From: an uncultured Prevotella sp.
GTDB taxonomy: Bacteria > Bacteroidota > Bacteroidia > Bacteroidales > Bacteroidaceae
Length of the DNA: 54,566 nt
Assembly (NCBI GenBank): GCA_944321295.1
Contig: CALUKU010000022.1
Coordinates: 1 to 54,566 of the forward strand
Direction: 5' to 3'
The stretch's first letter is position 1; every line of letters starts with the position of its first letter. Made by a program: the position numbers and the translations under genes. The notes beneath the pieces are model-generated. The model saw only the letters and a program-made list of their open reading frames with translations. It was not told the DNA's origin and did not search any database. Shown piece after piece: positions 18,580 to 49,314 of the stretch.

Positions 18580-18660
18580 AAAAGCTTGCCTTTTGAGGCA
18601 CAAGAGGTAAGCTTTTACGACGCAATAGGTAACCTTTCGCATTGTAAAAGGTGGCCTCTT
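18580..18660. repeat. 22-bp-phased dyad array, locus 1
   Basis: Four 15-bp dyads of the form aaaagg-nnn-ccttt at 18580-18594, 18602-18616, 18624-18638 and 18646-18660. Their centres (18587, 18609, 18631, 18653) are exactly 22 bases apart. A further palindrome, acacgttg-atatc-caacgtgt, is centred at 18566, and a catcc...ggatg hairpin follows. The array lies between the lipoprotein start and the peptidase promoter. See the finding on these arrays. Confidence 0.85.
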
Positions 18661-18736
18661 GGGGTCATCCGCAAATCTGTTTGGATGCAATGATACGCTT
18701 ATGAGCGGTCACGTGCTAAATAACGCATCCCTAAGG

Positions 18737-18845
18737 TAGGGACATAATTTATTATGTCCGCACGCCACGGAGGGGCGTATCCTTAGAGCGTCACTAATAA
18801 AATACGTTTCTTCGAAACGTGCGGACATAATAAATTATGTCCCTA
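18737..18845. repeat. MITE-like element A, copy 1 (perfect 28-bp terminal inverted repeats)
   Basis: A 109-bp element whose ends are perfect 28-bp inverted repeats (18737-18764 and 18818-18845). Each end contains the palindrome GGACATAATTTATTATGTCC. The interior holds a second palindrome, CGTTTCTTCGAAACG. There is no coding capacity. A second copy lies in inverse orientation at 37504-37604, and similarity between the two loci extends outward to about 18662 and 37682. Confidence 0.85.
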
Positions 18846-18852
18846 CAAAGTT

Positions 18853-18987
18853 CTGCGCCTTTTATTGTTGTTTGAATGTAAGATTGAATTTACATCCAAT
18901 GAAATTGCGGATGAACCTGGTTTGTCGCAGGCGGAAAAGGTGTTACGGATGCGCATTTTACAAGTTTTAAGAGAAATGGAGGCATAA
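18853..18987 (+). pseudogene. C-terminal fragment of a degraded gene
   Basis: A frame ending TAA at 18985-18987 reads IEFTSNEIADEPGLSQAEKV followed by LRMRILQVLREMEA, a soluble helical sequence with coding character. No start codon is found, and the frame runs back into the MITE-like element that ends at 18845. It looks like the tail of a gene cut by that element. The parent gene is not recognised. Confidence 0.4.
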
Positions 18988-19026
18988 TTTGGCGGCATAA
19001 TGTAATGTTTTGTCAATAAAAAAGAC

Positions 19027-19034
19027 TATTTTTG
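19027..19034 (+). promoter_or_regulatory. -7 element for the C1B peptidase gene
   Basis: TATTTTTG fits TAnnTTTG and lies 25 bases before the ATG. A TTTG occurs at 19009-19012 but only 14 bases away, shorter than the usual 19, so the upstream element is uncertain. Confidence 0.45.
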
Positions 19035-19059
19035 CCCGCAGAAAATAAATCTAATCAAA

Positions 19060-20475
19060 ATGACGACTACAAGAACTTACATTATGTCGGGCTTGCTGCT
19101 TGCGGCCTTGTCGCTGCCGTGCCATGCAAAGACCGACGACGGAGGCATATCAAAGGATATGCTCACAGAGATTAAGCAGGCCCAGCAGCGCACGCCGGCC
19201 GACCGCGCCTTGTTCAACGCCTTGGCCGCCAACAGCATTGACGCGCTGGCCGTCAACCAGGCCAACAAGGGCCCCGTTGACTCTTACTTCAGCGTGGAAA
19301 CGCCGCAGCAGAGCATACACGACCAGAAGCAGAGCGGACGCTGCTGGATGTTCAGCGGCTTCAACGTGATGCGTTCGGCCTTCGCGCAGCGTACTGATTC
19401 GCTCGTCGTAGACCTGTCGCACGACTATCTGTTCTTCTGGGACCAGCTGGAGAAGTCGAACCTCTTCCTGCAGGGCGTCATCGACTGCGCCGACAAGCCC
19501 ATCGACGACGAGCGTGTGCGCTTCTTCTTCAAGAGCCCCATTAACGACGGCGGTACTTACTGCGGCGTAGTTGACCTCGTGGCGAAATACGGACTCGTGC
19601 CTTCTGAGATAATGCCCGAAACTTATTCGAGCGACAACACGTCAAAGGTGGCAAGCCTGCTGAAGTCGAAGCTGCGCGAGTTCGGTCTGCAGCTGCGCGA
19701 CATGGTGGCAAAAGGCAAGAGCAAGGCCGACGTCAAGGCCGAGAAGACGCGCATGCTCGCCACCGTTTACCGCATGCTGGCGCTTACCATGGGCGAGCCT
19801 CCTACGGAGTTCACCTATGCCTTCAAGAACAAGGACGGACGCACCGTGACCGAGGCTAAGAAGTACAACCCCGTGACGTTCGCCGCCGAGATACTTGACG
19901 GCAAGCCGCTCAAAGGCTCGTTCATAATGGTGATGAACGACCCGCGCCGCGAGTATTACAAGACTTACGAGATTGAATATGACCGCCACACGTATGACGG
20001 CACTAACTGGAAATACCTCAACCTGCCGATGGAAGACATCGCCAAGATGGCCATCGCCTCGCTGAAGGACGGCATAAAGCTTTACAGCTCGTATGACGTG
20101 GCTAAGTTCCTCGACCGCAAGCGCGGTTATTGCGACATTAATAATTACGACTACGGCTCGCTATTCGGCACGACGTTCGGCATGGACAAGGCTCAGCGCA
20201 TCATGACATACGACAGCGGCTCGACCCACGCCATGACCCTCACGGCCGTCGACCTTGACAAGGACGGCAAGCCGGTGATGTGGAAGGTGGAGAACAGCTG
20301 GGGCCCCGACTACGGCCACAAGGGCTGTCTCGTGATGACCGACGAATGGTTCAACGAGTTCATGTTCCGCCTCGTTATCGACAAGAAGTACGTTCCCGCA
20401 GACATTATGAAGCAGTATGAGCAGAAGCCCGTCATGGTTATGCCCGAGGATCCGCTCTTCCTGCCGGACGAATAG
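19060..20475 (+). CDS. Secreted papain-like cysteine peptidase, C1B (bleomycin hydrolase/aminopeptidase C) type
   Basis: 471 residues. The N-terminal signal peptide ends at about residue 23 (LLLAALSLPCHAKTDD). The catalytic triad is visible: Cys95 in QSGRCWMFSGFNVMRS, His390 in GSTHAMTLTAVD and Asn412 in KVENSWGPDYGHKG, the C1B order and spacing. Family members trim peptides from the N-terminus as oligomers, with the C-terminus in the active site; this one is predicted to act in the periplasm. A mature length of about 450 residues matches the family. It is monocistronic, with a perfect hairpin terminator downstream (20541-20590) and a GC-rich repeat just after the stop. Confidence 0.92.
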   Translation: MTTTRTYIMSGLLLAALSLPCHAKTDDGGISKDMLTEIKQAQQRTPADRALFNALAANSIDALAVNQANKGPVDSYFSVETPQQSIHDQKQSGRCWMFSGFNVMRSAFAQRTDSLVVDLSHDYLFFWDQLEKSNLFLQGVIDCADKPIDDERVRFFFKSPINDGGTYCGVVDLVAKYGLVPSEIMPETYSSDNTSKVASLLKSKLREFGLQLRDMVAKGKSKADVKAEKTRMLATVYRMLALTMGEPPTEFTYAFKNKDGRTVTEAKKYNPVTFAAEILDGKPLKGSFIMVMNDPRREYYKTYEIEYDRHTYDGTNWKYLNLPMEDIAKMAIASLKDGIKLYSSYDVAKFLDRKRGYCDINNYDYGSLFGTTFGMDKAQRIMTYDSGSTHAMTLTAVDLDKDGKPVMWKVENSWGPDYGHKGCLVMTDEWFNEFMFRLVIDKKYVPADIMKQYEQKPVMVMPEDPLFLPDE

Positions 20476-20479
20476 AAAC

Positions 20480-20513
20480 CAACCTCCATCCCTCCGGAAG
20501 GGAGGGGGTTGAT
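20480..20513. repeat. GC-rich hairpin repeat downstream of the C1B peptidase
   Basis: ccaacctccatccctccgga continues as agggagggggttga: a chromosomal copy, 5 bases after the stop codon. Confidence 0.7.
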
Positions 20514-20540
20514 GTGTTTCGCTGTTTTTCTTGATATTTA

Positions 20541-20590
20541 TAAAATGAACGTGGGAGAAAGCCAAATTACTTTCTCCCACGTTCATTTTA
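20541..20590. terminator. Bidirectional terminator between peptidase and ddh
   Basis: A perfect 21-bp stem, taaaatgaacgtgggagaaa plus g (20541-20561) against its complement (20570-20590), with an 8-base loop and A/T-rich ends on both sides, between convergent genes. Confidence 0.92.
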
Positions 20591-20635
20591 TTTTGTATGT
20601 CAGCAAAACGTTGACGTTACCCGCAAAAGCATTTT

Positions 20636-20672
20636 AAGCTCCCTCCATTCGGGAGGGTTGGGGTGGGGCTTT
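20636..20672. repeat. GC-rich hairpin repeat at the ddh stop
   Basis: aagctccctccattcgggag continues as ggttggggtggggcttt: a chromosomal copy running up to the ddh stop codon. Confidence 0.75.
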
Positions 20673-21570
20673 ACACCAGGTGTGCCACCCATTCGTCCCT
20701 ATCGCCGGGCAGGAGGTCGACAACCGGTATTTCAATCATGGTGTAGCAGCCTGGCTGCTGGCGCATTGATGCGCGTGCTACGTTGACGAGCACCTGCGCG
20801 GTGAGCGCGGGGTTGTTAATGCTCATGTTGAACTCGAAGCGCTGGTTCTGCGTCTTTCCGCTCACGCCCTTGCGCACGAGGTTCACTCCGTGGCCCATAT
20901 CCTTAACGGCGTCGACGCTCGGCACCTCGATGACATATGTTTCGTCGGAAGCGAAGTAGGGGTCGGCCTTTACGGCTTTCGTCACTTCCTCGAGGCTTGC
21001 GCCGTCTTCCAGCTCAACGTAAACCATGCGGCGGTGTATGCCTTCGCCCTTGGGGATGGTTACGGAGAGCGCGTTCTTCACGCCGGCTTTTGAGCGCACG
21101 CACACAGAGTGGCCCATGCTCATGCCGGGGCCGAAGTTCGTATAGCTGAGTCCTTTGGGCGCGAGGCTCTCAAGCAGCGTGCGTACCACGCTGTCCGAGC
21201 CCGGGTCCCATCCGGCCGATATTATCGCCACGCGGCCGTGCTCCTTGCAAATCTTCATGAGGTTTGCGCGGTATTGGCTTATGCCCGTGTGGATGTCATA
21301 GCTGTCAACCGTGTTAATGCCCAGCGGAAGGATTTTTGCAGCATACTCCTCACAGCTTCTTGTCGGCGTCGCGAGTATCGCCACGTCAACGTCTTTCAGC
21401 TCGGTTATGTCCTTAACGACGTCATATTGCGCCAGTTCGGCGGGCTTGTTCTCGGCACCGTGGCGCCTTACGATGCCCGCAATCTCGAAGTCTTCAGCGG
21501 CTTCGAGCGCCTCAACGGTGAACTTACCGATGTTGCCGTAGCCTACTACGGCCGCTCTAATCTTCTTCAT
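20671..21570 (-). CDS. ddh: meso-diaminopimelate D-dehydrogenase
   Basis: 299 residues. It catalyses NADP-dependent interconversion of tetrahydrodipicolinate and meso-diaminopimelate, a one-step branch of lysine and peptidoglycan precursor synthesis. An N-terminal Rossmann motif GYGNIG is at 10-15. Family signatures follow: ATPTRSCEEYA, VDSYDIHTGISQYR, AIISAGWDPGSDSVVRTL, YTNFGPGMSMGHSV and, near the C-terminus, NPALTAQVLVNVARASMRQ. The length is the family norm. It is monocistronic on the minus strand; a -7 element TATCTTTG is at 21617-21610. The stop codon touches a GC-rich hairpin repeat (20636-20672). Confidence 0.96.
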   Translation of the reverse strand: MKKIRAAVVGYGNIGKFTVEALEAAEDFEIAGIVRRHGAENKPAELAQYDVVKDITELKDVDVAILATPTRSCEEYAAKILPLGINTVDSYDIHTGISQYRANLMKICKEHGRVAIISAGWDPGSDSVVRTLLESLAPKGLSYTNFGPGMSMGHSVCVRSKAGVKNALSVTIPKGEGIHRRMVYVELEDGASLEEVTKAVKADPYFASDETYVIEVPSVDAVKDMGHGVNLVRKGVSGKTQNQRFEFNMSINNPALTAQVLVNVARASMRQQPGCYTMIEIPVVDLLPGDRDEWVAHLV

Positions 21571-21609
21571 ATTCTAACAAATGTTTAATTGGTCTGTTGC
21601 TTTTGCGTG

Positions 21610-21617
21610 CAAAGATA
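21610..21617 (-). promoter_or_regulatory. -7 element for ddh
   Basis: On the minus strand TATCTTTG, a perfect TAnnTTTG, lies 40 bases upstream of the ddh start codon. No clear TTTG is seen 19 bases further upstream. Confidence 0.55.
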
Positions 21618-21748
21618 ATGTAAAATAGGTAAATAATAGCATTTTTGTTATTATAACAAATGTAAAATAAGACAATTGTAGCGGTATGCGCCTGCGCATT
21701 GTCAAATGTATTTACTTTACGTAATTGGATGTTTAACCTTATTTAAGC

Positions 21749-21786
21749 TTTCGGGGGGGGTAAATTAGAACTTTTTTATATATTTG
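21749..21786 (+). promoter_or_regulatory. Promoter-like sequence with G8 tract in the spacer
   Basis: TATATTTG at 21779-21786 fits a -7 element. Upstream, a TTTC (21749-21752) resembling the -33 box is followed at once by eight G (21753-21760), giving a 26-base spacer instead of about 19. Length change of the G tract would alter the spacing. A perfect palindrome AAAGCAAGGCCTTGCTTT follows about 30 bases later. Confidence 0.45.
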
Positions 21787-21933
21787 CAACCGACAAATAT
21801 ATTAATCAACATTAAAGCAAGGCCTTGCTTTCACGGCAGGCTTTTTCGGCGTCTGCAGCGCGGAGCGGTGCCCGTAATCGGAGAACCAACATAAACAAAT
21901 ATATATAACACGAACATTGGAAGTGCAGTTTTT

Positions 21934-21984
21934 TATGCCGTAACGTCGGTGCCGTCATGGGATAGGGCGCGGCGTTACGGCATA
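21934..21984. repeat. Inverted repeat in the 21571-22324 gap
   Basis: tatgccgtaacg (21934-21945) and its perfect complement (21973-21984) could form a 12-bp stem. The 750-base gap around it contains no convincing gene; a 93-codon minus-strand frame there has no family features. Confidence 0.5.
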
Positions 21985-22177
21985 ATGATGTGTTGCCGTC
22001 GGGTGTTGGCATGAGTTGTGCGGTGTGTCGCCCGGGCGTCATATGAGTGTCGACGTTTACCGTTTTGTGTGTTTCATTGTTATTAAATGCCACATTATTG
22101 TCCTTATTTTCGGTGATAAACGGATTTGTGTTAATATAATTTAACCATTGTATAAATCTGCCATTAAATATTTTTTA

Positions 22178-22185
22178 TACTTTTG
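22178..22185 (+). promoter_or_regulatory. -7 element for the lipoprotein/DUF5723-like operon
   Basis: TACTTTTG fits TAnnTTTG. It lies about 140 bases before the first start codon, in very AT-rich sequence, implying a leader of about 130 bases. No clear -33 TTTG is seen. Confidence 0.4.
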
Positions 22186-22324
22186 CAAAAAAATTAATTT
22201 TAAAAAGTTTAAGCCAACATTAATAAATTAAAATAAGTCTGTTTTGCGTCCGAGCGTATGAATTTGTCATACGTGTGGAAGTGTTAAGAATGTAAATGTA
22301 CAACTTAATTATAAAATATGACTA

Positions 22325-24085
22325 ATGGATTTTAATCGTTTTAAATCTTTCTTCCTGCCTTGCGTGGCAATGGCGGGAATGTTCGCGTTGTCGGGTTGCA
22401 CTGACAGTGACTACGACTTCAACGAAATTGACGCGACGATGGGCTTCGGAAGCGACGGACTTACGCTTCCCGTTAACTCCACCGACACAATCAAGCTGGC
22501 TGACGTGCTCGAACTTGACGGCAGCGATTGCGTCGTTGAGAAATCTAACGGCGACTATGTTTTCGAGCAGACGGGCGAAACGGTCGACCCCGTATACCCT
22601 GAGATTGACAAGATTACGGTGTCTAAATGGGGAGAGCCGCAGGAAGGCGAAATCGTGCTTAAGGTTGTGCCCATACCCGGTGGCACGGGCTTTACGATAT
22701 CAGCCGAGGGCGACGCCCAGACGTTTACTTATTCGGGCGACAAGCCCGCCGAGGTGAAGAGCCTTTCATATGTAGGCACTGACGCCACGATGCGCCTTAC
22801 GGTCAGCTTCCCGGCGGAGTTGAGCAGCGCAGTAAGCTCAATCAGCAACCTTACGATGCAACTGCCTGCTTATATGGATATAAGCAATGTGACTGCGTCG
22901 ACCGCGTGCACCGTCAGCGGCTCTACGCTCGTGTTCGCCAATATTCCGACAAGCAGGAACCTTACGGTTTCGGCCAATATAACAGGTCTTGACTTCAAGG
23001 CTTCAGACAAGTCGCTCGGCAGCGTAGCCATAGCCGGCGACAAGGTCGACATGTCAGGCACGATACGTGTTGCCGTAACGGCCACCGTTAACGGAGGAGC
23101 CGGCGTGACGGCTGTCGACGGCGCTAGGATACGCAGCTCTTTCACGATGGACGACATTGTAGTTGAGAACGCCAGGGGCGTATTCGACCCTGAAATCAAC
23201 CTTGACGATCTCGGCAGCGTCGACATAACCGGTGTGCCCGAATTCCTTACCGACGGCGACGTGTGGGTTGACCTTTACAACCCTGTAATCAACCTCTCGG
23301 TGTCTAATGATATGGCCGTAGGGGGCGTAATAAGCGGTACGATAACATCGTATAAGGACGGAGTCAAGCTTAAGAGCATTGACGTTAGCGACATACCCGT
23401 CAAACCGTCGGGCACCACCAAGGTGTGCATCTGCCGCAGGAAGGACGGTATCAACATCGCCGAGTATGACGTCGTGCGCGATTACGCAGACCTGTCAGAG
23501 CTGATAAGGGAAATCCCCGACAGGATAACTTTCTCTGCGAGCGCACGTGCCGATGCGTCAAAGGAAAGCACGTTCGAGCTTGGCCGTCAGTACACCGTCC
23601 AGCCTGAATACTCGTTCACGGCCCCGATCATGTTCGACCAGAACGCAAGCATCGTTTATAAGGATACCATCGACGGATGGCATGAGGACATCGAGGACTT
23701 CGAACTTGCCGAAGGCTCTTACATCAACCTTACCACTACGATTGAAAACCGCGTGCCGGCTTACCTCAACGTAGACGTAACACCCATCGACGTTGACGGC
23801 AACGCAATGGGCAGCGACGAGATATCCGTAGAAGTAAGCAACAGCGTGCTGGCTTCGGGCGACGGCGAGAACTCTACCGAAACGCCGCTCTCAGTAGACA
23901 TCAAGCAGAACAAGGACGGTGCGCTCAGCCGTCTTGACGGCCTCGTGTTCCACGTGTCGGCCAAGGCTTCGGAGGACGGCCAGAAGCCTGTTACAGGCGT
24001 TACGCTCAACGCCCGCAAGCACTTCCTCATAGCGCGTGACATCAAAGTGAAATTCGTAGGAACCGTCATCGGCGACTTCAACTAA
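22325..24085 (+). CDS. Large surface lipoprotein of unknown function
   Basis: 586 residues. Signal peptide with lipobox ALSGC (Cys25), followed by acidic residues (TDSDYDFNEID), which in Bacteroidetes is compatible with surface export. The rest is beta-rich with immunoglobulin-like strand patterns (for example VSFPAELSSAVSSISNLTMQ and VDLYNPVINLSVSND), suggesting several stacked beta domains. No catalytic motif is visible. It is followed after only 14 bases by a predicted outer-membrane barrel gene, so the two products probably form a pair in the outer membrane. The coding sequence has the GC level of the chromosome. I do not know the family. Confidence 0.75.
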   Translation: MDFNRFKSFFLPCVAMAGMFALSGCTDSDYDFNEIDATMGFGSDGLTLPVNSTDTIKLADVLELDGSDCVVEKSNGDYVFEQTGETVDPVYPEIDKITVSKWGEPQEGEIVLKVVPIPGGTGFTISAEGDAQTFTYSGDKPAEVKSLSYVGTDATMRLTVSFPAELSSAVSSISNLTMQLPAYMDISNVTASTACTVSGSTLVFANIPTSRNLTVSANITGLDFKASDKSLGSVAIAGDKVDMSGTIRVAVTATVNGGAGVTAVDGARIRSSFTMDDIVVENARGVFDPEINLDDLGSVDITGVPEFLTDGDVWVDLYNPVINLSVSNDMAVGGVISGTITSYKDGVKLKSIDVSDIPVKPSGTTKVCICRRKDGINIAEYDVVRDYADLSELIREIPDRITFSASARADASKESTFELGRQYTVQPEYSFTAPIMFDQNASIVYKDTIDGWHEDIEDFELAEGSYINLTTTIENRVPAYLNVDVTPIDVDGNAMGSDEISVEVSNSVLASGDGENSTETPLSVDIKQNKDGALSRLDGLVFHVSAKASEDGQKPVTGVTLNARKHFLIARDIKVKFVGTVIGDFN

Positions 24086-24099
24086 CCATCAAACACCTA

Positions 24100-25598: not shown

Positions 25599-25660
25599 GT
25601 TATTTGTCCGCTGGTTGACCCAAATTCCGTATTAACCGATAAGCAAATCGGCAGGTTTCC

Positions 25661-25741
25661 GAAAGGCGGCCTTTCGGCTTGTAATAGGCGGCCTTTTAAA
25701 GGCTAAAAGGTTACCTTTCGCACGCTGAAAGGTAACCTTTT
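25661..25741. repeat. 22-bp-phased dyad array, locus 2
   Basis: Four 15-bp dyads at 25661-25675, 25683-25697, 25705-25719 and 25727-25741 (gaaaggcggcctttc, aataggcggcctttt, aaaaggttacctttc, gaaaggtaacctttt). The centres are exactly 22 bases apart. It lies downstream of the barrel gene terminator and upstream of the C10 protease promoter. Confidence 0.88.
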
Positions 25742-25924: not shown

Positions 25925-27130
25925 ATGAAAAAGTTTTATTTATTATTAGGGTTAGTGACATCTCTGTTTGTTTCGTGTTCGACAGATGTTGTTGATGAAG
26001 TTGTAGATAGCTCAAACAATTCTTATGTTGTCAATGATGCAGGTCATAAGATTACTGAGAGTGAAGCTTTGGACATTGCAAACCGTTTCTTGAAGTCTAC
26101 ACGTTCAAGTTCTGATTTTAATGTAAGTTATGTATTGGATAAAGGAAAAACTCTAACGAGGGCTGTTGGTGTTTCAGATACGTTAGCTTATATTTTGAAT
26201 AGAGCTGACGATAATGGTTTTATTGTTATTGCAACTGACGATAGGGTGAATCCTGTATTGGCTTTCTCTGAAGAGGGTAAGTTTGAGTATGAGGAAAGTT
26301 ACGATGACATCGTGTATGCAAATTTTGTCAGCAAGATTGATGACTATATGGCAACAATTGACGAAAATGATACCGCTGTCGCCGTTCAATATGATATTTT
26401 AGAAAGTTGTGTTAGTGAATTACCAAGAGCTGCAACTTCTTGGAGCCAGTTTTCGCCATATGATAAGTATGTAATAGAGGAACATCCTAATTGTCCCGTT
26501 GGTTGTGTTGCCGTTGCTTGTGGGCAAGTAATGCTTTATGGAAAAAGCAGTTTGGAATATCATGGTGAGGTTTATAATTTCTCTTCTATTAGAAACGCTC
26601 TTGAAAAACAAGAAAAAGAGCTTGAGGGGAATGTTTATTCGACAAGAATTGTAGGACCTCCCGCTGAAATAAGTTATGATGAAGCTATTGATAAGGTTGC
26701 TAAAATGTTGTATTGGATAGGTAAAGATGTTCATATGTCTTATAGTCCAGCAAAAAGTGGCACAGATAGTAAATATGCTTATGAATTGGTCAAAAGTTTA
26801 GGTTACAAATTATCTACAGATGGGCTTACTAATTTTGTAGATACAACTGTGATGAGGCATATTGTAAATGGGGATATAGTTTATATAAAAGGAACAGACA
26901 TTAATGCAGGGGCTGGACATGCTTGGATTATTGATGGTGGATATTTCTGTTGGGCAAATGAAGAGAAAGGTGTGATGAATACTCCGTATCTTCATTGTGA
27001 ATGGGGATGGAATGGAGAACATAATGGATATTATCTCGGAAGAGTTATATCTGTAACAGATCGGTATTTGTTTTCTGTAAATGGTTATAGATTTACACAG
27101 CTTGAATATTTTGCAGTAGGTAAGAATTAA
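25925..27130 (+). CDS. Streptopain-family (C10) cysteine protease lipoprotein with Spi-like prodomain
   Basis: 401 residues. Signal peptide with a lipobox-like SLFVSC (Cys18). Residues ~40-165 form a Spi-type inhibitory prodomain (ESEALDIANRFL, AYILNRADDNGFIVIATDDRVNPVLAFSEEG). The catalytic domain from ~170 shows Cys194 in CPVGCVAVACGQVM, His332 in GAGHAWIIDGGYF and the Trp loop CEWGWNGEHNGYYLG, as in SpeB and interpain A. Such proteases are secreted and cleaved for activation. The gene is strikingly AT-rich compared with its neighbours, including its own operon partner, which suggests recent acquisition. The next gene starts 12 bases after the stop, so the two are probably co-transcribed. 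Confidence 0.93.
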   Translation: MKKFYLLLGLVTSLFVSCSTDVVDEVVDSSNNSYVVNDAGHKITESEALDIANRFLKSTRSSSDFNVSYVLDKGKTLTRAVGVSDTLAYILNRADDNGFIVIATDDRVNPVLAFSEEGKFEYEESYDDIVYANFVSKIDDYMATIDENDTAVAVQYDILESCVSELPRAATSWSQFSPYDKYVIEEHPNCPVGCVAVACGQVMLYGKSSLEYHGEVYNFSSIRNALEKQEKELEGNVYSTRIVGPPAEISYDEAIDKVAKMLYWIGKDVHMSYSPAKSGTDSKYAYELVKSLGYKLSTDGLTNFVDTTVMRHIVNGDIVYIKGTDINAGAGHAWIIDGGYFCWANEEKGVMNTPYLHCEWGWNGEHNGYYLGRVISVTDRYLFSVNGYRFTQLEYFAVGKN

Positions 27131-27142: not shown

Positions 27143-28267
27143 ATGAGAAAAGGATGGTATTTATTGGTTTGTCTGTTTGTTACGCTTTGCGCATGTACGA
27201 ATGACGCGGACGATATGTATGGAATGGACGGGAACGTGCGTAGCGGCGAAGTGGAGGAACGGATAGAGCTGTCGGCCACGGAAGTTGCGCTTGACTATTT
27301 TGGCAGAACGGTGGTTGTAGACGCTGAAGGCACAGGATGGTGGATAAGCGGCATTGAGCTTGACGGCAAGATGGCTTACGAGCCTACGCAGGACGAGCTT
27401 GACAAGCTGGCTGAAACCGGAAGTCTTAAGCTGACATGCGACTGGCTCACGATAATGTGCAGGGACAATAAGATAATGATAAGCGCTATGGAAAACGGCT
27501 GCGAGGAGAGGACTTTCAAGATACACCTTCAGTCGGGCGACAATGCCGGCGCCATAACCGGACATCAGTCGGCAGCTCCGTTGGAGGGTCCGTGGCCTAA
27601 TCCGTTACGCTTGTCGATCAAGGATGTTACGCTTGACGAGTATGGCAGAATGGTGTATGTAGACACCGAAAGCAAAGGGTGGTGGATATACGGCATTGAG
27701 GTTGACGGCAAGATGGTTTGCCAACCTACTTCAACCGAAATGAAGAGGCTTGCTGAAACCGGAAGTTTCAATGTGACATGTGACTGGCTCACGGTGATGT
27801 GCAGGGACAATAGGATAATGATAAGCGCCAAGAAAAATAATAACGATGAAAGAAAATTCAAGATATACCTTCAGGACTGCAACTATTCTGACGCCGTAAC
27901 CGGAAGTCAGGATGCGGTTTCACCGACAGGTCCGTGGCCAGACAAAATACACCTGTCAGCTAAGTACGTGACGCTTGACGCAGATGGCAGTGCGGTGTAT
28001 GTAGACGCCGAATGTAAAGGATGGTATATATACGGCATTGAGGTTGACGGCAAGGTGGTTTGCCAGCCTACTTCAATCGAGATGAAGAAGCTTGCTGAAA
28101 CCGGAGAGTTCAATGTGACATGTGATTGGCTCACGGTGGTGTGCAAGGACAATAGGATAATGATGAGCGCCGATCAAAACCGTGACGAGGAGAGGACTTT
28201 CAAGATACTCCTTCAGCAAGGCGACAATACTTCCGCCATAACAGGACGCCAGGAGGCAGCCTTTTAA
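27143..28267 (+). CDS. Lipoprotein of three tandem ~114-residue BACON-like repeats, partner of the C10 protease
   Basis: 374 residues. Lipoprotein signal (LFVTLCAC, Cys18), then three homologous repeats at about 41-154, 155-268 and 269-374. Each runs LSxxxVTLDxxG, VYVDxxxKGWWIYGIEVDGK, a helix with LAETG, TCDWLTVMCRDNRIMISA, ERxFKIxLQ and AITGxQ, joined by GPWP linkers. The CDWLTV...NRIMISA...ER part resembles BACON-type beta domains. Each repeat has two conserved Cys in the CDWLTVxC motif. In Bacteroides fragilis, C10 proteases can have small inhibitor genes co-transcribed beside them; this position suggests an inhibitor, anchor or substrate-presenting role, which is inference. Confidence 0.8.
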   Translation: MRKGWYLLVCLFVTLCACTNDADDMYGMDGNVRSGEVEERIELSATEVALDYFGRTVVVDAEGTGWWISGIELDGKMAYEPTQDELDKLAETGSLKLTCDWLTIMCRDNKIMISAMENGCEERTFKIHLQSGDNAGAITGHQSAAPLEGPWPNPLRLSIKDVTLDEYGRMVYVDTESKGWWIYGIEVDGKMVCQPTSTEMKRLAETGSFNVTCDWLTVMCRDNRIMISAKKNNNDERKFKIYLQDCNYSDAVTGSQDAVSPTGPWPDKIHLSAKYVTLDADGSAVYVDAECKGWYIYGIEVDGKVVCQPTSIEMKKLAETGEFNVTCDWLTVVCKDNRIMMSADQNRDEERTFKILLQQGDNTSAITGRQEAAF

Positions 28268-37000: not shown

Positions 37001-37094
37001 CGCCGCCCCGCGGGCGCTTTTCTTCCGTCGCAGATGGCCGTTTTAAAGGTCTTAATCATACGGTCTGTAAATCATTGATTTCCAATATGTTTGC

Positions 37095-37175
37095 AATAGG
37101 CCGCCTTTTGGACTCCAAAAGGCGGCCTATTGTCGTTTAAAAGGTTACCTTTTGCATCGTAAAAAGCCGCCTATT
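37095..37175. repeat. 22-bp-phased dyad array, locus 3
   Basis: Dyads at 37095-37109, 37117-37131, 37139-37153 and 37161-37175; centres 37102, 37124, 37146 and 37168, exactly 22 apart. Upstream TTGATTTCCAATATGTTTG matches TTGATATCCAACGTGTTG before locus 1, and downstream a tcattccgca...tttggatg stretch matches the same part of locus 1. Confidence 0.88.
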
Positions 37176-37266
37176 TAGGCTCATTCCGCAGTTTTGTTTG
37201 GATGTTTTTAATAAGCAGATGATTAAAGTATTGAAAAGAACTCCGCCCTTGTAGGGGCGTAATTTA

Positions 37267-37503
37267 ACGTGAGTTTGGTATAAGGAAGACCCACTCTCAT
37301 GTGGATATGAACACCCTCGTCCAAGTGAGGCGCTCGGTAATCGTCATCCCGGACTTGATCCGGGAACCAGTCGTATGCCGCAACGTTGTCATGAGAGGGT
37401 GCTTTCATTCTGGTTCCCGGATCAAGTCCGGGATGAACGATTACCGACTGCTTGGATTGGAAGAGGGTGTATTCATACGTATGTTCTTATACCAAATTTA
37501 CGT
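37267..37503. repeat. MITE-like element B', 237 bp, with nested hairpin insertion
   Basis: The ends acgtgagtttggtataa (37267-37283) and ttataccaaatttacgt (37487-37503) match element B. The interior carries a second inverted repeat, cggtaatcgtcatcccggac onwards (37335-37370), pairing with 37410-37446 almost perfectly. This is the widespread catcccggacttgatccggg type and looks like one repeat inserted inside another. Confidence 0.8.
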
Positions 37504-37604
37504 TAATTTATTATGTCCGCACGTTTCGAAGAAACGTATTTTAGTAGTGACACTCTAAGGATACGCCCCTCCGTGGCGTGCGGACATAATAAATTATGTC
37601 CCTA
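37504..37604. repeat. MITE-like element A, copy 2, inverted and 5'-truncated
   Basis: It matches the reverse complement of 18737-18845 with few changes. The right end (37577-37604) is complete and identical to the 28-bp terminal repeat, while the left end lacks its first bases where it meets element B'. Similarity continues to about 37682. Confidence 0.85.
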
Positions 37605-37831
37605 CTTTAAGGATGCGTTATTTAGCTCGTGACAGCCCATAAGCGTATCATATGCATCCAACAGGTTTGCTGATGACCCGCCTGTCATTGGTTATGTATA
37701 TTCTGTTTAACCACAATCGGTGTAAGTCTTTATGTCGAACTCACGAGGATTTAATGATTTTTATGTACGTGTTTTCGTTCCTGTGAGGCATAAGTGTTAA
37801 TTTTGCCGCTCAATGATTTCCATTCAAGATT

Positions 37832-39773: not shown

Positions 39774-39779
39774 CATCGT

Positions 39780-39840
39780 GTTTTTCATAGTATTAGATTT
39801 AAGGTTAACAAGGTTGGAGTACAGCGGTACTCCTTTTTTT
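39780..39840 (+). ncRNA. Candidate small RNA (~60 nt) with own promoter and terminator
   Basis: Downstream of a good promoter is a short non-coding stretch (tcatagtattagatttaagg, then ttaacaaggtt), ending in the hairpin ggagtac-agcg-gtactcc followed by seven T (39816-39840). The sequence block feels familiar from intergenic regions of other Bacteroidales, which would suggest a conserved small RNA, but I cannot name an Rfam family. The transcript would end about 250 bases before fba, which has its own promoter, so it is not simply an fba leader. Its start is inferred from the -7 position. Confidence 0.6.
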
Positions 39841-40009
39841 ATGCCTTAATGTCAGGGCGCCGCCCGCCCGCGCGTTCTTTTTCACATCGAAAAGAGCCTG
39901 TCGGTTGGCATTTTGTAAGATTAACATGCCAAAACGTTTAAACGCGGCTTTATAATGTGAAATTAATCTGAAAATTCACGGATTTGCAACCTAAAAGTGA
40001 CACCAAAGT

Positions 40010-44319: not shown

Positions 44320-44847
44320 GTGATATTTAGAACATTTCTTATAGCACTTTTCATGCTTACTGGCTGTACCTTCCTCCTGGCTCAGGAGAAAGGTATGGCC
44401 AGTTATTATTCTAACAGGTTGCATGGCCGCCGCATGAGCGACGGTTCGAGATATCATCGCGACAGCCTTACATGCGCCCACAAGCGTTATCCGCTCGGCA
44501 CAATGTTAAAGGTCACCAACCTTAAGAGCAACCGGAGCGTTGTGGTGAAGGTGACAGACAGGTGCAGCAGCCGCAGGATAATCGACCTCTCGTATGCCGC
44601 CGCCAAAGAATTGCGCATGATATCGTCGGGCGTAGCTATGGTAAGGGTCGAGAAGTATGAGCCACCTTTGGGTATTCCGTTCAGACCGTCGGACGCCATC
44701 GACATTCCCGAACTTGACTTCGAGATAACCGCCGGGGATGACGACATAACGCCGATATGGATGAGAACCGACGACGAGCGTGAGGCGAAACATGAAATTA
44801 AGGCGCAGTCGAGAAGTGAACGGAGAAAACGTAATGCGCATAAGTGA
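44320..44847 (+). CDS. rlpA: RlpA-like septal lytic transglycosylase domain protein
   Basis: 175 residues starting at GTG 44320. A signal peptide with LTGC at residues 13-16 (a possible lipobox) or cleavage after LLAQ. The double-psi beta-barrel domain is clear: GMASYYSNRLHGRRMSDGSRY, LTCAHKRYPLGTMLKVTNLKSNRSVVVKVTDRC, RIIDLSYAAAKELRM and VRVEKYEP. These domains cut denuded glycan strands at the septum. No SPOR domain is present; instead an acidic segment and a Lys/Arg-rich C-terminal tail follow. It lies directly downstream of gdhA and ends before a terminator at 44904. Confidence 0.88.
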   Translation: MIFRTFLIALFMLTGCTFLLAQEKGMASYYSNRLHGRRMSDGSRYHRDSLTCAHKRYPLGTMLKVTNLKSNRSVVVKVTDRCSSRRIIDLSYAAAKELRMISSGVAMVRVEKYEPPLGIPFRPSDAIDIPELDFEITAGDDDITPIWMRTDDEREAKHEIKAQSRSERRKRNAHK

Positions 44848-44903
44848 CTTCGGTTATTAGTGATAACGGCCGAACGTATTGATATGAAATCAGAAAAACA
44901 ATT

Positions 44904-44933
44904 GTTCATGCCCAAATGGCATGAACTTTTTTT
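44904..44933 (+). terminator. Terminator of gdhA-rlpA
   Basis: gttcatgcc and ggcatgaac form a 9-bp stem with a 5-base loop, followed by seven T. Confidence 0.88.
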
Positions 44934-45028
44934 ATGTGCACTTAATGCATGAAGGCATTGTATTATTCATGTCCGTAAGTTCATCCGCCTGTTGTGTTGA
45001 TGGTTTCATGCAGCGTAAAATGCCTTTA

Positions 45029-45084
45029 ACCCAAATCTGTATTAGACTTCAGACATATACGTTCTAATGACCGATTTGGGTTTA
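45029..45084. repeat. Imperfect inverted repeat in the 44848-45353 gap
   Basis: aacccaaatctgtattagac and gttctaatgaccgatttggg form an interrupted dyad. A related half-copy (cccaaattccgtattaacc) occurs at 25619-25637. Apart from this and the terminator, I see nothing else in the gap except the promoter-like TAACTTTG at 45305. Confidence 0.5.
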
Positions 45085-45278
45085 ACCGCGATAACGTATT
45101 AGGCTGCATTGTTTCCGTTCGGCGTTAATCATGATGATGAATGTAAAAGGGTGAATGTCTGTCATGCGCCAGAACGTCGGATGAACCATTGCTATGTTTG
45201 CAATGTACGTAAAAATCAGTATTGTGTATTGTAATATTTCTGTGATTTTTATGTACAAAATGTTATAAAATGACGATA

Positions 45279-45312
45279 TTTGTTGTGATTTTAAAATATA
45301 TTTTTAACTTTG
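45279..45312 (+). promoter_or_regulatory. Promoter of the large type IX cargo gene
   Basis: TTTG (45279-45282), a 22-base spacer, TAACTTTG (45305-45312), 42 bases before the ATG. Confidence 0.65.
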
Positions 45313-45353
45313 CAAACGAGTATATTCCGAATAATAACCAATAACCATATATC

Positions 45354-47834
45354 ATGAAAACAAGAAACCTTAATTTTTTATCAAACAGAAGATTTGCCGC
45401 CGTGTTAGCCATGGTGGCAACGGCGCTCATTGCCTATGCGCAAGAGGCTGTCGTGCCGTCGATAGAAAATGTGACGCAACGCACGGCGGTGATTAATGCA
45501 AGGACAAACGCAGAGGGTACGAACGTGAAAGCCCGCGGACTGCAAATAAGTGAGTATGTTAATGGTGGCGACTATGCATGGGAAACCATCGACTATGCCG
45601 GAGGTGACGAATTATACACTTACAGGAAAGAAGGATTACGGGTAGACACTTGGTATGCGGTACGTTCATTCGTCGTTCCGGAAAACGGTGATACAATCTT
45701 CAGCGGTAATGAGCTGTTCAGCACGAAGAACATTGAAATCTTCACGGACAGCGTCGTGAGCATAAGCCAGACAAAGGCTGTGCTTTACGGCCGTATATCA
45801 AAGGGCGACGACACGGCCAACAGCTGGCGTTACCATGTGTACAAATACAACCCCGGATATTGGGAAGGCAGCGACTACATACGCGGGAGTTATTCCTTAT
45901 ATGAGGAATTTCCCATCGCGTCGACCGACACTTTTGTCGTAGTGCCGCTTGACGGACTTGAGAACGGAACCATCTTCGGCGCCGCACTCTCTGCATGTAA
46001 CAGCAAGGGGGAAAGGGTTATGTCGCATACATACAAATATGAGGATCAGCGGGATTTCGTTAAGACCATGCTTGACGAGGGCTCTTCGCCCATAAAGTCA
46101 TACACAAACGACGGTTGGGCTTATGCAAACACGGGCGAATTTCTAATAGCAAACAGCAGTTCCGACTTGACGATAAAAGTAAACCTGCCTGCCCCGGTAG
46201 TATTGTGTTTTGACTGGGAGATAAAAGGTGAAAAGAAATGGTTTGATAAAGTTACATACATGAACTTGTATGTCGACGACATGAAAAGCTCTAAAAGATC
46301 TATAACTCCCGAACACGTAGACGAATATACCACCGAACACATAACCTATCATCTTGATCCCGGAGAGCATACAATTCTTTGGACTGCCAATGAAGCCAAG
46401 GACATGGGTGCTATAATCCGTAACATTAAGTTCGGCGACGATTACCAGTATTTCACCACGAAAGAGTTTCTGTCAAACTTACGTTCAGGCACAACGGCCG
46501 TCACGGCTACGTTGTCGGCAAACGTATTGCAGGCTGAAGATTGTGAAGTCGTTGAATACGGATTTGAGTATAGGCTTCGCGACGGCGGCGGCGAATTCGT
46601 CGCGATACCCTGTGAAGTGAACGAAAACCAACGCATAAGCACCAAGGTGACCGGCCTTACGCCGGATACGGAGTATGAATATCGCGGATACGTGAAGACG
46701 AGCGACGGGAAAAAACATTATACGCCAATATACGTTTTATACACATTCGCATCATACGCCCATGCTACGGTCGACCCTATGCAGACGTCGGCCATGCTGA
46801 CCGTCGAGTTTGAAATTAACGGCGCAACGGTCATAGGAACGGGAATAGAATACGGAGTATCGGACAACTACGGTACGCTTGTCGAGAACTTGTCTGAAGA
46901 AATGCTGCTGACCGAACTTAATCCCGGCACTGAATATTATTACAGGCTATATGTTGACACCGAGGAAGGCGGACGTGTTTACCGTACGGGTACGTTCACC
47001 ACGAAGGAAATCACCTTGACGACGCTGCCCGTCAGCAACATCTCTAACCGCTCGGCTACGTTCAACGGCACCGTGGAGTGTGACACCTGCAGCAGTGCCG
47101 TGATAGGATTCCAGTGGAAGACGATGACCGGATGGCTGAGCGACCCGAGGTTTACCGAGGGCGTTCTGACAGGTGAAGGCGGCGTGGCGCTGGGTCTTAC
47201 CGACGGCATGCTTAAGGCAGACACTGACTACCAGTACCGCACGGCGGTGAAATACAAGGACAAGTTCTATTATTCCGACTGGCAGACGTTCCGCACCGAG
47301 CTTGAGTTCGTGGCATGGCCGCCCACGGTCGGCACCATGTACCGCACCGACAGCGACAGCAACCGCATAGTGCTTTGCGGATACATCGTGCCCGGAAGCG
47401 AGGCTGTGACCGAGTACGGATATGAATATTGGCGCGCGGAAACAAGGACGAGAGCCGCCGACGTGACGCGCGTCGTCACCGGCCCTGACATGGTTTATAC
47501 GCTTGACCTGACACAGCTCGAGGCCGGCGATTATTGCATACGCGCTTACGCAAAGACCGCCAGCGGAACGCAATACGGCGAAACGCTGACGTTCAGCGTC
47601 GACGTAATGTCGGGAATATCGTCGGTCGGCACGTCGCTGCCGGTCTGCCGCGCCGCTGACGGCAAGCTGTTGATAGCCAACGCCGAGGGCATGAGGTATT
47701 ACGTAGCCGACCTGTCGGGACGAATCGTCGCAGCAGGCACCTGCGCATCGTCAACCGAGAGCGTAAGCCTTGGCGATGGAATTTACGTCGTCCGCATTGA
47801 CGGCGGCCATGTCTTCAAGGTGATGGTAAGATAA
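45354..47834 (+). CDS. Large secreted protein with fibronectin-like modules and type IX sorting tail
   Basis: 826 residues. Signal peptide (AAVLAMVATALIAYAQ, cut near residue 30). The mature part holds repeated beta modules of fibronectin III style: each has 'VxxxTAxxxxxVxxxG...GxEY...GLxPxTxYxYRxYVxTxxG' (for example VTGLTPDTEYEYRGYVKTSDG and LNPGTEYYYRLYVDTEEGG). A distinct beta-sandwich domain lies at about 255-370 (WEIKGEKKWFDKVTY, LDPGEHTILWTA). The last ~60 residues fit a type IX sorting domain: GMRYYVADLSGRIVAAG ... GIYVVRIDGGHVFKVMVR. It is predicted to be exported through SprA and attached to the surface. Ligand unknown. A strong terminator follows. Confidence 0.88.
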   Translation: MKTRNLNFLSNRRFAAVLAMVATALIAYAQEAVVPSIENVTQRTAVINARTNAEGTNVKARGLQISEYVNGGDYAWETIDYAGGDELYTYRKEGLRVDTWYAVRSFVVPENGDTIFSGNELFSTKNIEIFTDSVVSISQTKAVLYGRISKGDDTANSWRYHVYKYNPGYWEGSDYIRGSYSLYEEFPIASTDTFVVVPLDGLENGTIFGAALSACNSKGERVMSHTYKYEDQRDFVKTMLDEGSSPIKSYTNDGWAYANTGEFLIANSSSDLTIKVNLPAPVVLCFDWEIKGEKKWFDKVTYMNLYVDDMKSSKRSITPEHVDEYTTEHITYHLDPGEHTILWTANEAKDMGAIIRNIKFGDDYQYFTTKEFLSNLRSGTTAVTATLSANVLQAEDCEVVEYGFEYRLRDGGGEFVAIPCEVNENQRISTKVTGLTPDTEYEYRGYVKTSDGKKHYTPIYVLYTFASYAHATVDPMQTSAMLTVEFEINGATVIGTGIEYGVSDNYGTLVENLSEEMLLTELNPGTEYYYRLYVDTEEGGRVYRTGTFTTKEITLTTLPVSNISNRSATFNGTVECDTCSSAVIGFQWKTMTGWLSDPRFTEGVLTGEGGVALGLTDGMLKADTDYQYRTAVKYKDKFYYSDWQTFRTELEFVAWPPTVGTMYRTDSDSNRIVLCGYIVPGSEAVTEYGYEYWRAETRTRAADVTRVVTGPDMVYTLDLTQLEAGDYCIRAYAKTASGTQYGETLTFSVDVMSGISSVGTSLPVCRAADGKLLIANAEGMRYYVADLSGRIVAAGTCASSTESVSLGDGIYVVRIDGGHVFKVMVR

Positions 47835-47866
47835 AGCATTTTCATACACCACATTCCCTATATAAT

Positions 47867-47911
47867 GCCGGGGTTGCGTCTTCTCCGTTAAGACGCAGCC
47901 CCGGCGTTTTT
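47867..47911. terminator. Terminator after the type IX cargo gene
   Basis: gccggggttgcgtctt (47867-47882) pairs perfectly with aagacgcagccccggc (47890-47905), followed by T-rich sequence; it also faces the convergent hxlR-type gene. Confidence 0.92.
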
Positions 47912-47964
47912 TCAGCGTCCCCCATGGACGGGAAACAGCCTGGTCCGAAAAGCTTAAATAACAT

Positions 47965-48339
47965 TTAGTTATCCTTAAGCAGATACCTGTTCCTGTCGGT
48001 CTGTATGTCGTCCATGTTGTTTTTTGCCCAGTCGATAAGATTGTCAATCAGCGGAATGAGAGTCATGCCGCGTTCGGTCAGGCTGTATTCCACCCTTGGC
48101 GGCACTTCGGCATACACCCTGCGGGCCACAAGGCCGTCGGCCTCGAGCACCTTCAGTACGGTCGAGAGCATCTTCTTCGATATGTCGGGTATGTATAATT
48201 TTAGTCCGTTGAAGCGCAACACGCCGTGCCGTTCAAGGGTGAACAGCACAAGCATAGACCATTTGTCGCCAATCCTTGACAGCACGTTCCTTATCGGGCA
48301 GTCAGGAAAAAGGGCGCTCTGTGATTCAATCTTTGTCAT
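47965..48339 (-). CDS. HxlR-family winged-helix transcriptional regulator
   Basis: 124 residues. Typical HxlR pattern: the N-terminal Cys-containing CPIRNVLSRIGDKWSMLVLFTL, LRFNGLKLYIPDISKKMLSTVLKVLEADGLVARRVY with the recognition helix, EVPPRVEYSLTERGMTLIPLIDNLIDWAKNN. The conserved Cys (in CPIRNVL) is the position that senses redox or electrophiles in several relatives. It is divergent from a cupin gene whose promoter lies 240 bases away, a common arrangement for a regulator and its target. Ligand unknown. Confidence 0.92.
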   Translation of the reverse strand: MTKIESQSALFPDCPIRNVLSRIGDKWSMLVLFTLERHGVLRFNGLKLYIPDISKKMLSTVLKVLEADGLVARRVYAEVPPRVEYSLTERGMTLIPLIDNLIDWAKNNMDDIQTDRNRYLLKDN

Positions 48340-48577
48340 AAAGAAACCATTATTAGTCTACAAAAGTAACTAATAATGATGTAAAAACGAAACCATTGAT
48401 GGTTAAACATTGTAAAACACGGTCGCGCAACACGTTGTAATACAGTAAAAGTAACGTCGGCGTAACCAGGTTCCATTCAGCTTACTTCTTGCGTAAAACG
48501 CTGTAAAACAATACCTTTGCATAAAATAAAGCTGCACTCGGGAACTGAAAGTGAACTTTCTTTCTTCTCGTTTGCGC

Positions 48578-48585
48578 TATCTTTG
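48578..48585 (+). promoter_or_regulatory. -7 element of the cupin gene
   Basis: TATCTTTG, a perfect TAnnTTTG, 41 bases before the chosen ATG at 48626. It argues against the longer frame starting at 48551. Confidence 0.65.
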
Positions 48586-48625
48586 CGCCAAGATAAACAA
48601 CCATAAACCATTAAAACAAAAGAAG

Positions 48626-49096
48626 ATGAAAGAACTGAAAGTATTAAGTGAAGGAACAAACTTCACGGCCGTTTCGGCCGGAGAATTCGGCAAGTTGAAC
48701 GATTTTGAGTTGCCCATGGGCCCCGGCGTTACCGTCAAGGGCAAGGTGTTCGCGGGCGCGGCGCTCAAGTCTACGGGCATGGAGATGTCGCTGCAGGTGA
48801 TGGCGCCGGGGCAGGCGAGCCCCTTCGTGCATGCCCACAAGACGCACGAGGAGCTTTACGTGATAATCCGGGGCGAGGGCGAGTTCCGCATTGACGACAG
48901 CCTCTTCGCCGTGGCCGAGGGCAGCCTCGTGCGCGTGGCTCCGGCCGGACGGCGCGCCCTGCGCAACACGGGCGCTACGGACATGGTGGTGATGTGCATC
49001 CAGTATAAGGCCGACAGCTTCGGCGAGGGCGACACGCCCATGGGCGACGGCGTTATACTCGACGGCGAAGCGTTCCCCGACGGCTTGTCGCGCTGA
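48626..49096 (+). CDS. Cupin-domain protein
   Basis: 156 residues from the ATG at 48626; the upstream frame crosses the promoter. A single cupin barrel: motif 1 SPFVHAHKTHEELYVIIRGEGEF (two His plus Glu for metal binding) and motif 2 VRVAPAGRRALRNTG, where the usual motif-2 His is replaced by Arg. Cupins of this size bind a metal or small ligand and often act as isomerases or dioxygenases; the activity cannot be predicted. It is divergent from the HxlR regulator, which probably controls it. No signal peptide, so cytoplasmic. Confidence 0.85.
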   Translation: MKELKVLSEGTNFTAVSAGEFGKLNDFELPMGPGVTVKGKVFAGAALKSTGMEMSLQVMAPGQASPFVHAHKTHEELYVIIRGEGEFRIDDSLFAVAEGSLVRVAPAGRRALRNTGATDMVVMCIQYKADSFGEGDTPMGDGVILDGEAFPDGLSR

Positions 49097-49233
49097 CGTC
49101 GGTTGAGGCCCGGTTTTAACCCAAGCCGCCCTTAAGACTTTTGCCGTATTACCCGCTTGCGCAGAGCGTGCGTAATCGTCTTATTGTCAGCATGTTGGCC
49201 GCCATGGAGCGCCATGTTGCCGGCAAGCTTTGC

Positions 49234-49314
49234 AAAACGCCGCCTTTCAGCACGTGAAAGGCGGCGTTTTGCACGCTAAAAGGTTACCTTTTACGCCTTA
49301 ATAGGCCACCTTTT
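49234..49314. repeat. 22-bp-phased dyad array, locus 4
   Basis: Dyads at 49234-49248, 49256-49270, 49278-49292 and 49300-49314; centres 49241, 49263, 49285 and 49307, exactly 22 apart. A palindrome TTGCCGGCAA (49217-49226) lies just upstream. It lies between the cupin gene and the promoter of the leucine-rich repeat gene. Confidence 0.88.

What the first reader, a model, noticed from the sequence alone, without database searches (positions are those of the whole stretch)
18580..49314. Four intergenic arrays of four 15-bp dyads with an exact 22-base period
At 18580-18660, 25661-25741, 37095-37175 and 49234-49314 there are exactly four dyads each, of form aaaagg-nnn-ccttt. In all sixteen units the centre-to-centre distance is 22 bases, i.e. 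two helical turns, although the unit sequences differ between copies (ttacc, taacc, gcggcc, ggtggcc cores) and the 7-base spacers are unrelated. A further palindrome lies just upstream of each array (centres near 18566, 25643, 49221; TTGATTTCC-type at locus 3), and loci 1 and 3 share flanks. Strict phasing with diverged spacers implies selection for protein binding on one DNA face, or for a chain of four RNA hairpins. None occur in the prophage; three follow the 3' end of a plus-strand gene.
Basis: seen in the sequence. Interest (0 to 1): 0.85.

Follow-up and report, generated by a model that had tools for sequence, protein, structure and literature searches.

The report
Evenly spaced four-unit DNA palindrome arrays
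Some bacteria related to Prevotella carry many short DNA blocks between their genes, each built of four palindromic units 22 letters apart and often spread at surprisingly regular distances along the chromosome, which suggests an unrecognised chromosome-organising signal or an unusually disciplined mobile repeat.

Summary
The four arrays belong to a chromosomal family in Prevotella-type bacteria, about 245 copies in this genome (extrapolated from 38 in 400 kb). In 804 kb of three genomes, 94 arrays fit a 22-base period and none any other period from 16 to 29; 91 of 94 have at most four scoring units. Unit cores differ between species, but the frame does not. Covariation is strongest between units 1+2 and 3+4 (two 35-nt hairpins), weaker within the small dyads; the linker between hairpins is just as rigid. 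Arrays are intergenic, indifferent to transcription, as common between divergent genes as expected, nearly strand-symmetric, and recur at orthologous sites with replaced cores. They are spaced unusually evenly in five of seven stretches (CV 0.30-0.54 against 0.69-0.81 expected), but not in P. bivia nor one G000 stretch. They lack REP tags, do not track Y1 transposases, are not placed like terminators, and match no Rfam family in the window. Best reading: double-stranded DNA docking platforms for a protein bound on one helix face, perhaps marking intervals of about 10 kb. A mobile repeat with target immunity is a close rival. The protein is unknown.

The parts
18553..18579 (+). End palindrome 'A' of array 1 (GTAAC-n3-YTG...CAR-n3-GTTRC)
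   Evidence: read directly; model hit 18548-18665 +
18581..18659 (+). Array 1: units 18581-18593, 18603-18615, 18625-18637, 18647-18659; hairpins 18581-18615 and 18625-18659
   Evidence: E 8.4e-24
25636..25651 (+). Partial end palindrome upstream of array 2 (CCGAT-n6-ATCGG)
   Evidence: read directly
25662..25740 (+). Array 2: units 25662-25674, 25684-25696, 25706-25718, 25728-25740; stronger hairpin is units 3+4
   Evidence: E 6e-21; the site downstream of a DUF5723 gene also holds an array in 5 of 12 other genomes read there
37068..37094 (+). End palindrome 'A' of array 3, imperfect
   Evidence: read directly
37096..37174 (+). Array 3: units 37096-37108, 37118-37130, 37140-37152, 37162-37174
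   Evidence: E 3e-23
49207..49233 (+). Weak end palindrome upstream of array 4
   Evidence: read directly
49235..49313 (+). Array 4: units 49235-49247, 49257-49269, 49279-49291, 49301-49313; 19-bp perfect hairpin over units 1+2
   Evidence: E 7.3e-20; beside a cupin-family gene that also has an array on its 3' side in 3 other genomes of the sample

Best explanation
Each array is a fixed-length (79-bp core, about 110-120 bp with its end palindrome) double-stranded DNA docking platform. A host protein, probably a dimer that oligomerises, is inferred to read the repeated motif TTTYRC-nnn-GYRAAA centred on the 9-base spacers every 22 bp (about two turns, hence one helix face), while the 13-base cores between them are freer and drift in concert within a species. 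The complementarity of units 1+2 and 3+4 is inferred to reflect dimer symmetry and/or the copying process that homogenises cores. Because arrays sit between genes regardless of transcription and are spaced more evenly than chance (mean 6-12 kb in the dense genomes), the inferred job is chromosome organisation: anchoring or bounding intervals of roughly 10 kb. Shown by computation: frame, unit number, covariation pattern, similar conservation of all three spacers, gene context, shared orthologous sites, even spacing in most stretches. Inferred: the protein, its binding mode and the organising role.
For: Period 22 only, 94 arrays against 0 at other periods, and spacing-neutral 122 against 3 off-phase, which includes the unit 2-3 linker that belongs to neither hairpin. 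All three spacers are about equally conserved, 5.1, 4.5 and 4.9 bits, although only two can be hairpin loops. Little strand preference: G-T against A-C mispairs 236:181 in hairpin 1 and 279:260 in hairpin 2 over 187 arrays. Context close to background, and orientation to co-directional genes 32:22. Comparable orthologous gaps between G004 and G068: 4 both, 3 one only, 15 neither, Fisher p=0.009; orientation kept in 8 of 9 hand-picked orthologous pairs, while mean core identity is 0.56 against 0.53 for all G004-G068 pairs. Even spacing: CV 0.36, 0.30, 0.54, 0.51 and 0.34 against nulls 0.69-0.81 in five stretches, p from below 1/4000 to 0.008; the G004 C1 stretch was fetched afterwards to test the idea and agreed.
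Against: No binding protein was identified and no neighbouring gene is shared by more than 4 genomes of the sample. Arrays are patchy: model hits in 18 of 36 same-genus genomes, so the genus can do without them. Even spacing fails in P. bivia (12 arrays, CV 0.93, p=0.74), one of the two stretches fetched as a test, and in G000 C2 (CV 0.69, p=0.37); it weakens to p=0.09 in G004 C1 when only gaps of 300 bases or more are used. The window against G004 and G068 gave only 4 comparable gaps each and no shared array. Hairpin covariation is not needed for a plain protein site. Species-wide replacement of cores implies a copying process, which favours a mobile or converting repeat. Hairpin 1 has a slight G-T excess.
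Confidence: 0.42

Rival explanations
1. A miniature mobile (MITE/BIME-like) repeat moved in trans by an unknown enzyme that recognises the two hairpins. Fixed length is the substrate requirement, even spacing comes from target immunity or loss of close copies, and species-specific cores come from turnover and gene conversion.
For: High copy, intergenic, patchy in the genus. G068 140393 and 143452 share 101 bases (-12 to +88, 7 mismatches) but differ in most of A and in flanks. G004 126285 and 134211 share units 3 and 4 with their spacer but differ in units 1 and 2 (by eye). Hairpin covariation. At the DUF5723 site, unit 4 of G072 differs wholesale from that of G068 while units 1 and 2 are identical (by eye).
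Against: Y1 transposase genes occur in 11 of 18 array-positive and 10 of 18 array-negative same-genus genomes (hand tally). The single Y1 match in G000 is followed by a GTAG REPIN, not an array. One viral contig only. Sites are shared between species, with orientation kept in 8 of 9 pairs. Few close copies: 33 shared segments of score 34 or more among 130 arrays.
Confidence: 0.38
2. A transcribed RNA element or bidirectional terminator made of two hairpins.
For: All four window arrays fold better than shuffles on both strands, z -4.0 to -6.4. At the DUF5723 site, several species without an array carry another inverted repeat instead (by eye). Slight G-T excess in hairpin 1.
Against: 25 of 91 placed arrays lie between divergent genes (background 55 of 294 gaps) and orientation is not clearly biased, 32:22. 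The linker between hairpins is as rigid as the hairpins. No Rfam match at the arrays at gathering thresholds. Near strand symmetry.
Confidence: 0.12
3. Four independent short-dyad operators for one transcription factor (a regulon).
For: Each unit is roughly palindromic and within-unit covariation exceeds shuffles.
Against: Tens to hundreds of sites per genome by extrapolation, no preference for promoters, and in co-directional gaps arrays lie nearer the upstream stop than the downstream start. Covariation is stronger between units than within.
Confidence: 0.06

Closest known systems
REP / BIME / REPIN elements (GTAG- and CGTC-tagged; PMC3733652, passages seen)
   Same: High-copy extragenic palindromic repeats forming hairpins, often as inverted dimers. 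BIMEs that bind gyrase or IHF are a functional parallel (recalled, no call).
   Different: No GTAG or CGTC tag, no association with Y1/RAYT genes, four slots at a fixed 22-base period, species-specific cores at shared sites, even spacing. GTAG-type and CGTC-type REPs exist beside them in the same genome.
ERIC, BOX and NEMIS-type intergenic repeats (recalled, no call)
   Same: Size of about 100-130 bp, intergenic, palindromic, without a known mover.
   Different: Those are families of related sequence; here the sequence is free to change while a frame of four 22-bp units is kept.
Tandem operator or partition arrays such as sopC and tubC (recalled, no call)
   Same: Regular helically phased repeats that bind a protein.
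   Different: Those occur once or a few times per replicon; these are many and dispersed.
HMP2_1065, an 80-bp palindromic candidate structured RNA near ruvA in Bacteroidetes (PMC8040213, passages seen)
   Same: Length, host phylum and neighbouring gene resemble the array site between the DUF5723 gene and what reads as ruvA (ruvA named by eye).
   Different: Its sequence was not seen, so identity is only a lead; that paper predicts it to be a Rho-independent terminator.

Membership tests
GTAG/CGTC-tagged REP | GTAG or CGTC tetranucleotide at one end | tested here: not met
   GTAG in 6 and CGTC in 15 of 94 arrays within 15 nt of an edge; median over 256 tetramers 14
GTAG REP/REPIN | gene for a Y1/RAYT transposase flanked by the repeat | tested here: not met
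   the single Y1 match in G000 is followed by a GTAG REPIN; presence does not track arrays, 11/18 against 10/18 (hand tally)
REP/BIME in the broad sense | many extragenic palindromic copies | tested here: met
   93 of 94 arrays outside called genes
Intrinsic terminator | lies downstream of genes, absent between divergent genes | tested here: not met
   25 of 91 placed arrays in divergent gaps, background 55 of 294
Known RNA family | match to an Rfam 15 model | tested here: not met
   window only, gathering thresholds: a single match, FopS at 39778-39843
CRISPR array | near-identical repeats with unique spacers of about 30 bases (recalled) | tested here: not met
   13-base units vary, spacers are 9 bases
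MITE / non-autonomous transposon | terminal inverted repeats and target-site duplication | tested here: inconclusive
   one-sided end palindrome A; three occupied/unoccupied orthologous gaps were printed but flanks were too diverged to find a duplication
Nucleoid-protein docking array | specific bound protein | not testable with these tools
   no binding data; only phasing, spacer conservation and even distribution

The most novel reading that the evidence does not exclude
A sequence-flexible but geometry-rigid chromosomal ruler: intergenic platforms of four 22-bp units, placed every 6-12 kb in dense genomes and kept at orthologous sites while their cores are rewritten species by species, recruit a still unknown nucleoid protein that divides the chromosome into units of about 10 kb.
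Probability: 0.25. Interest if true: 0.92.

Novelty: new variant of a known kind. Interest (0 to 1): 0.74.

Why it matters
Dispersed bacterial palindromes are usually read as decaying selfish debris (recalled). Here the 22-base frame is kept exactly while sequence changes, some sites persist between species, and copies are spread evenly in most stretches tested. If it is a docking array, it gives a mapped set of candidate domain boundaries in a widespread bacterial group and makes 'what sets domains of about 10 kb in bacteria' testable. If it is a mobile repeat, it is one with a strict substrate geometry and apparent self-avoidance.

Tried and rejected
RAYT-driven REP: rejected. Terminator: rejected as the main role because of divergent contexts. 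Four small RNA hairpins: disfavoured by covariation. A as a separate target site: solo A-like hits at the strictest cut total 24 against 15 in controls, and several of the examples printed sit beside weak or undetected arrays; at the middle cut there is an excess, 85 against 46, mostly from G000 C2 (25 against 0), so this is not fully closed. A generic hairpin-length scan was uninformative. A gene shared beside arrays: the widest neighbour clusters covered 4 genomes. Phage origin: one viral contig with the strict pair. Literature: eight searches gave no description of these arrays; the library is open-access PMC only, so prior description elsewhere is not excluded. Two papers were opened, as passages: PMC3733652 and PMC8040213; all others were seen as search listings.

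Weak points. The unit matrix was trained on G000 arrays found by the AAAGG pattern, so G004 and G068 are the cleaner test (63 neighbours at 22, 9 at 44, 1 at 23). G004, G068, G000 and P. bivia arrays are among the 77 that built model R1. Orientation was assigned by an EM fit that is uncertain for some arrays; G068 75798 may be flipped, which would make 7 of 9. The outer halves of units 1 and 4 also gave z 3.5. Genes were called by my own ORF and hexamer script. Genome-wide searches scored about 60 or 30 candidates per genome, so counts there are floors and absences may be false. That G010 is P. bivia is inferred from the shared contig length. In the even-spacing tests I retyped hit positions, one per array. 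Dropped: P. bivia hits with E 0.025-0.093 (three), L276:9965 (E 0.077), the 36-nt hit pair at L263:3190-3226 and the L220:12064-12143 pair (E 0.003-0.005), and the cut-off L091:1-41. Kept: L231:142-291 (E 0.003) and L098:17160 (E 0.007). Added: G000 C2 39930, cut by a stretch boundary. One matrix array (G000 C3 71746) has no model hit and was not in the second set. The same tests with the matrix-based arrays gave p 0.012, 0.35, 0.009, 0.005, 0.0075, 0.003 and 0.65.
Full report
The four arrays. At 18581, 25662, 37096 and 49235 there are four 13-base units each, spaced 22/22/22. The covariance model built later finds these four in the window (best E 8e-24 to 7e-20) and nothing else below E 0.05. 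They lie 7.1, 11.4 and 12.1 kb apart.

A genome-wide family. The window lies in a 2.58-Mb genome (G000). The strict two-unit pattern is found 84 times there and 0 times for the reversed control. Where printed, the Bacillota-titled contigs carry arrays, and the proteobacterium and Oscillospiraceae hits are lone two-unit palindromes (output cut; the Nomurabacteria locus was not examined). In contiguous stretches I count 16, 13 and 9 arrays in 200, 100 and 100 kb of G000, 44 in 400 kb and 29 in 197 kb of G004, 26 in 153 kb of G068 and 12 in 400 kb of P. bivia, by extrapolation about 245, 320, 475 and 75 per genome.

Frame. With a unit matrix, 94 arrays appear at period 22 in 804 kb and none at 16-21 or 23-29. 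Slots outside the four score above zero in 1-2% of arrays; 45 arrays have four scoring units, 35 three, 11 two and 3 five. With cores only and no spacing assumed, neighbours lie 22 bases apart 122 times, 44 apart 16 times, and 19, 23 and 34 once each; outside the training genome 63 at 22, 9 at 44 and 1 at 23.

What is paired. Among 94 oriented arrays, half-site complementarity exceeds shuffles by z above 3 for unit 1 with unit 2 (5.8 and 8.2) and unit 3 with unit 4 (5.5 and 3.0), and also for the outer halves of units 1 and 4 (3.5); no pair within a unit or between units 2 and 3 did so. On 77 aligned arrays from many species, 31 of 32 long-hairpin pairs show changes on both sides and the score is 0.320 against 0.201+-0.008; for units 2+3 it is 0.203 against 0.191+-0.010 (double-change cells 89 against 54.9+-12.6), and within units 0.214 against 0.166+-0.007. 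The plus-strand folds of the four window arrays show the unit 1+2 and/or 3+4 hairpins; the minus strand of array 1 folds otherwise. The three spacers share YRC-nnn-GYR and are about equally conserved. Mispairs show little strand preference. One end often carries a further palindrome, GTAAC-n3-YTG...CAR-n3-GTTAC, centred 21 bases before unit 1; it reaches 7 of 8 pairs in only 12 of 94 arrays, 9 of them at distance 21.

Context. 93 of 94 arrays lie outside called genes. Of 91 that could be placed, contexts are ++ 36, -- 18, -+ 25, +- 12, against 127, 76, 55 and 36 for gaps of at least 130 bases; orientation to co-directional genes is 32:22. Of 294 such gaps, 91 hold one array and none holds two.

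Evolution. The site after the DUF5723 gene holds an array in G000 (146 bases after the stop) and in 5 of 12 other genomes whose downstream sequence was read (G004, G075, G068, G072, G071); in those five it follows closely behind the stop codon, A end first, by eye. Between G004 and G068 (mean 83% protein identity over 49 reciprocal best hits), 22 comparable gaps give 4 both, 1 and 2 single, 15 neither, p=0.009; the window against either gave 4 comparable gaps and no shared array. Nine orthologous pairs picked by hand from the synteny map keep orientation in 8, with mean core identity 0.56 (one pair 0.76) against 0.53 for all cross pairs. Cores are species-typical: commonest GGCCGCC and GCTTACC in G000, GGCGGCA and CATGGCC in G004, GATGCCC and GGGCACC in G068, and different again in G012, G017 and G006, one array each seen. 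Copying occurs: two G068 arrays 3 kb apart share 101 bases including the core but not most of A.

Distribution. The model hits 18 of 36 same-genus genomes and 1 of 24 from other families of the order, the latter weak and unconvincing by eye. Drawn over the family it hits 18 of 121, namely 8 of the same genus and 10 of other genera with 1-5 hits each, both strands counted. Y1 transposase genes do not track arrays.

Even spacing. Against random placement in the same intergenic gaps, at most one per gap and weighted by length, the CV of inter-array distance is 0.36 (null 0.81, p below 1/4000), 0.69 (0.77, p=0.37) and 0.30 (0.69, p=0.005) in G000; 0.54 (0.79, p=0.008) and 0.34 (0.80, p below 1/4000) in G004; 0.51 (0.79, p=0.003) in G068; and 0.93 (0.83, p=0.74) in P. 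bivia. Combined p is about 5e-9 over all seven. The idea arose; G004 C1 and P. bivia were fetched afterwards as tests, and one agreed while the other did not. When gaps were limited to at least 200, 250 and 300 bases the G004 C1 result was p=0.001, 0.002 and 0.09. Target immunity or loss of close copies would also produce this.

Conclusion. The frame, spacer conservation, near strand symmetry, indifference to transcription and even spread point to a DNA-level function, most simply a phased protein platform. Hairpin covariation and concerted replacement of cores also require a copying process, so a mobile repeat with strict geometry is almost as likely. I file it as a new variant of extragenic palindromic repeats, because membership of the tagged REP families was tested and failed.

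Noticed in passing
window 18665-18914; also 37181-37204 onward: A separate MITE-like element with ends GGTTCATCCGCAAATCTGTTGGATG-type lies directly against unit 4 of arrays 1 and 3 and at several other arrays of G000; a GTAG REPIN (18736-18846) is nested inside. This explains the shared flanks of loci 1 and 3.
   Followed up: partly
window 37251-37605: GTAG-type halves around a CGTC-type palindrome pair (37343-37436), so both known REP super-families occur in one Prevotella-type genome.
   Followed up: no
L059 about 2270-2940 (G000 C2 about 6270-6940): The single Y1-transposase match in G000 is followed closely by a GTAG REPIN, like a REPtron.
   Followed up: partly
window 39778-39843: Rfam match to FopS, a Bacteroidetes family of paralogous sRNAs (77.3 bits).
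   Followed up: no
L256 (G088), L257 (G129), G004 C3 88764: Arrays in genomes of two other genera resemble one G004 array in flanks and units, suggesting a transferred or unusually conserved copy (by eye).
   Followed up: no
G068 C53 57196 and 127345; L134, L138, L160: A subfamily with another leading end (CTTACGGTTTTCACTTGCTTCCGGCAAGT-type) and, in several, a TTTGAAAC trailing end (by eye).
   Followed up: no
window 27269-28260: 342-bp tandem repeat, 2.9 copies, next to a Peptidase_C10-type gene at 25925-27130.
   Followed up: no
L255: The only viral-collection contig with the strict pair holds a four-unit array; it may be host DNA.
   Followed up: no
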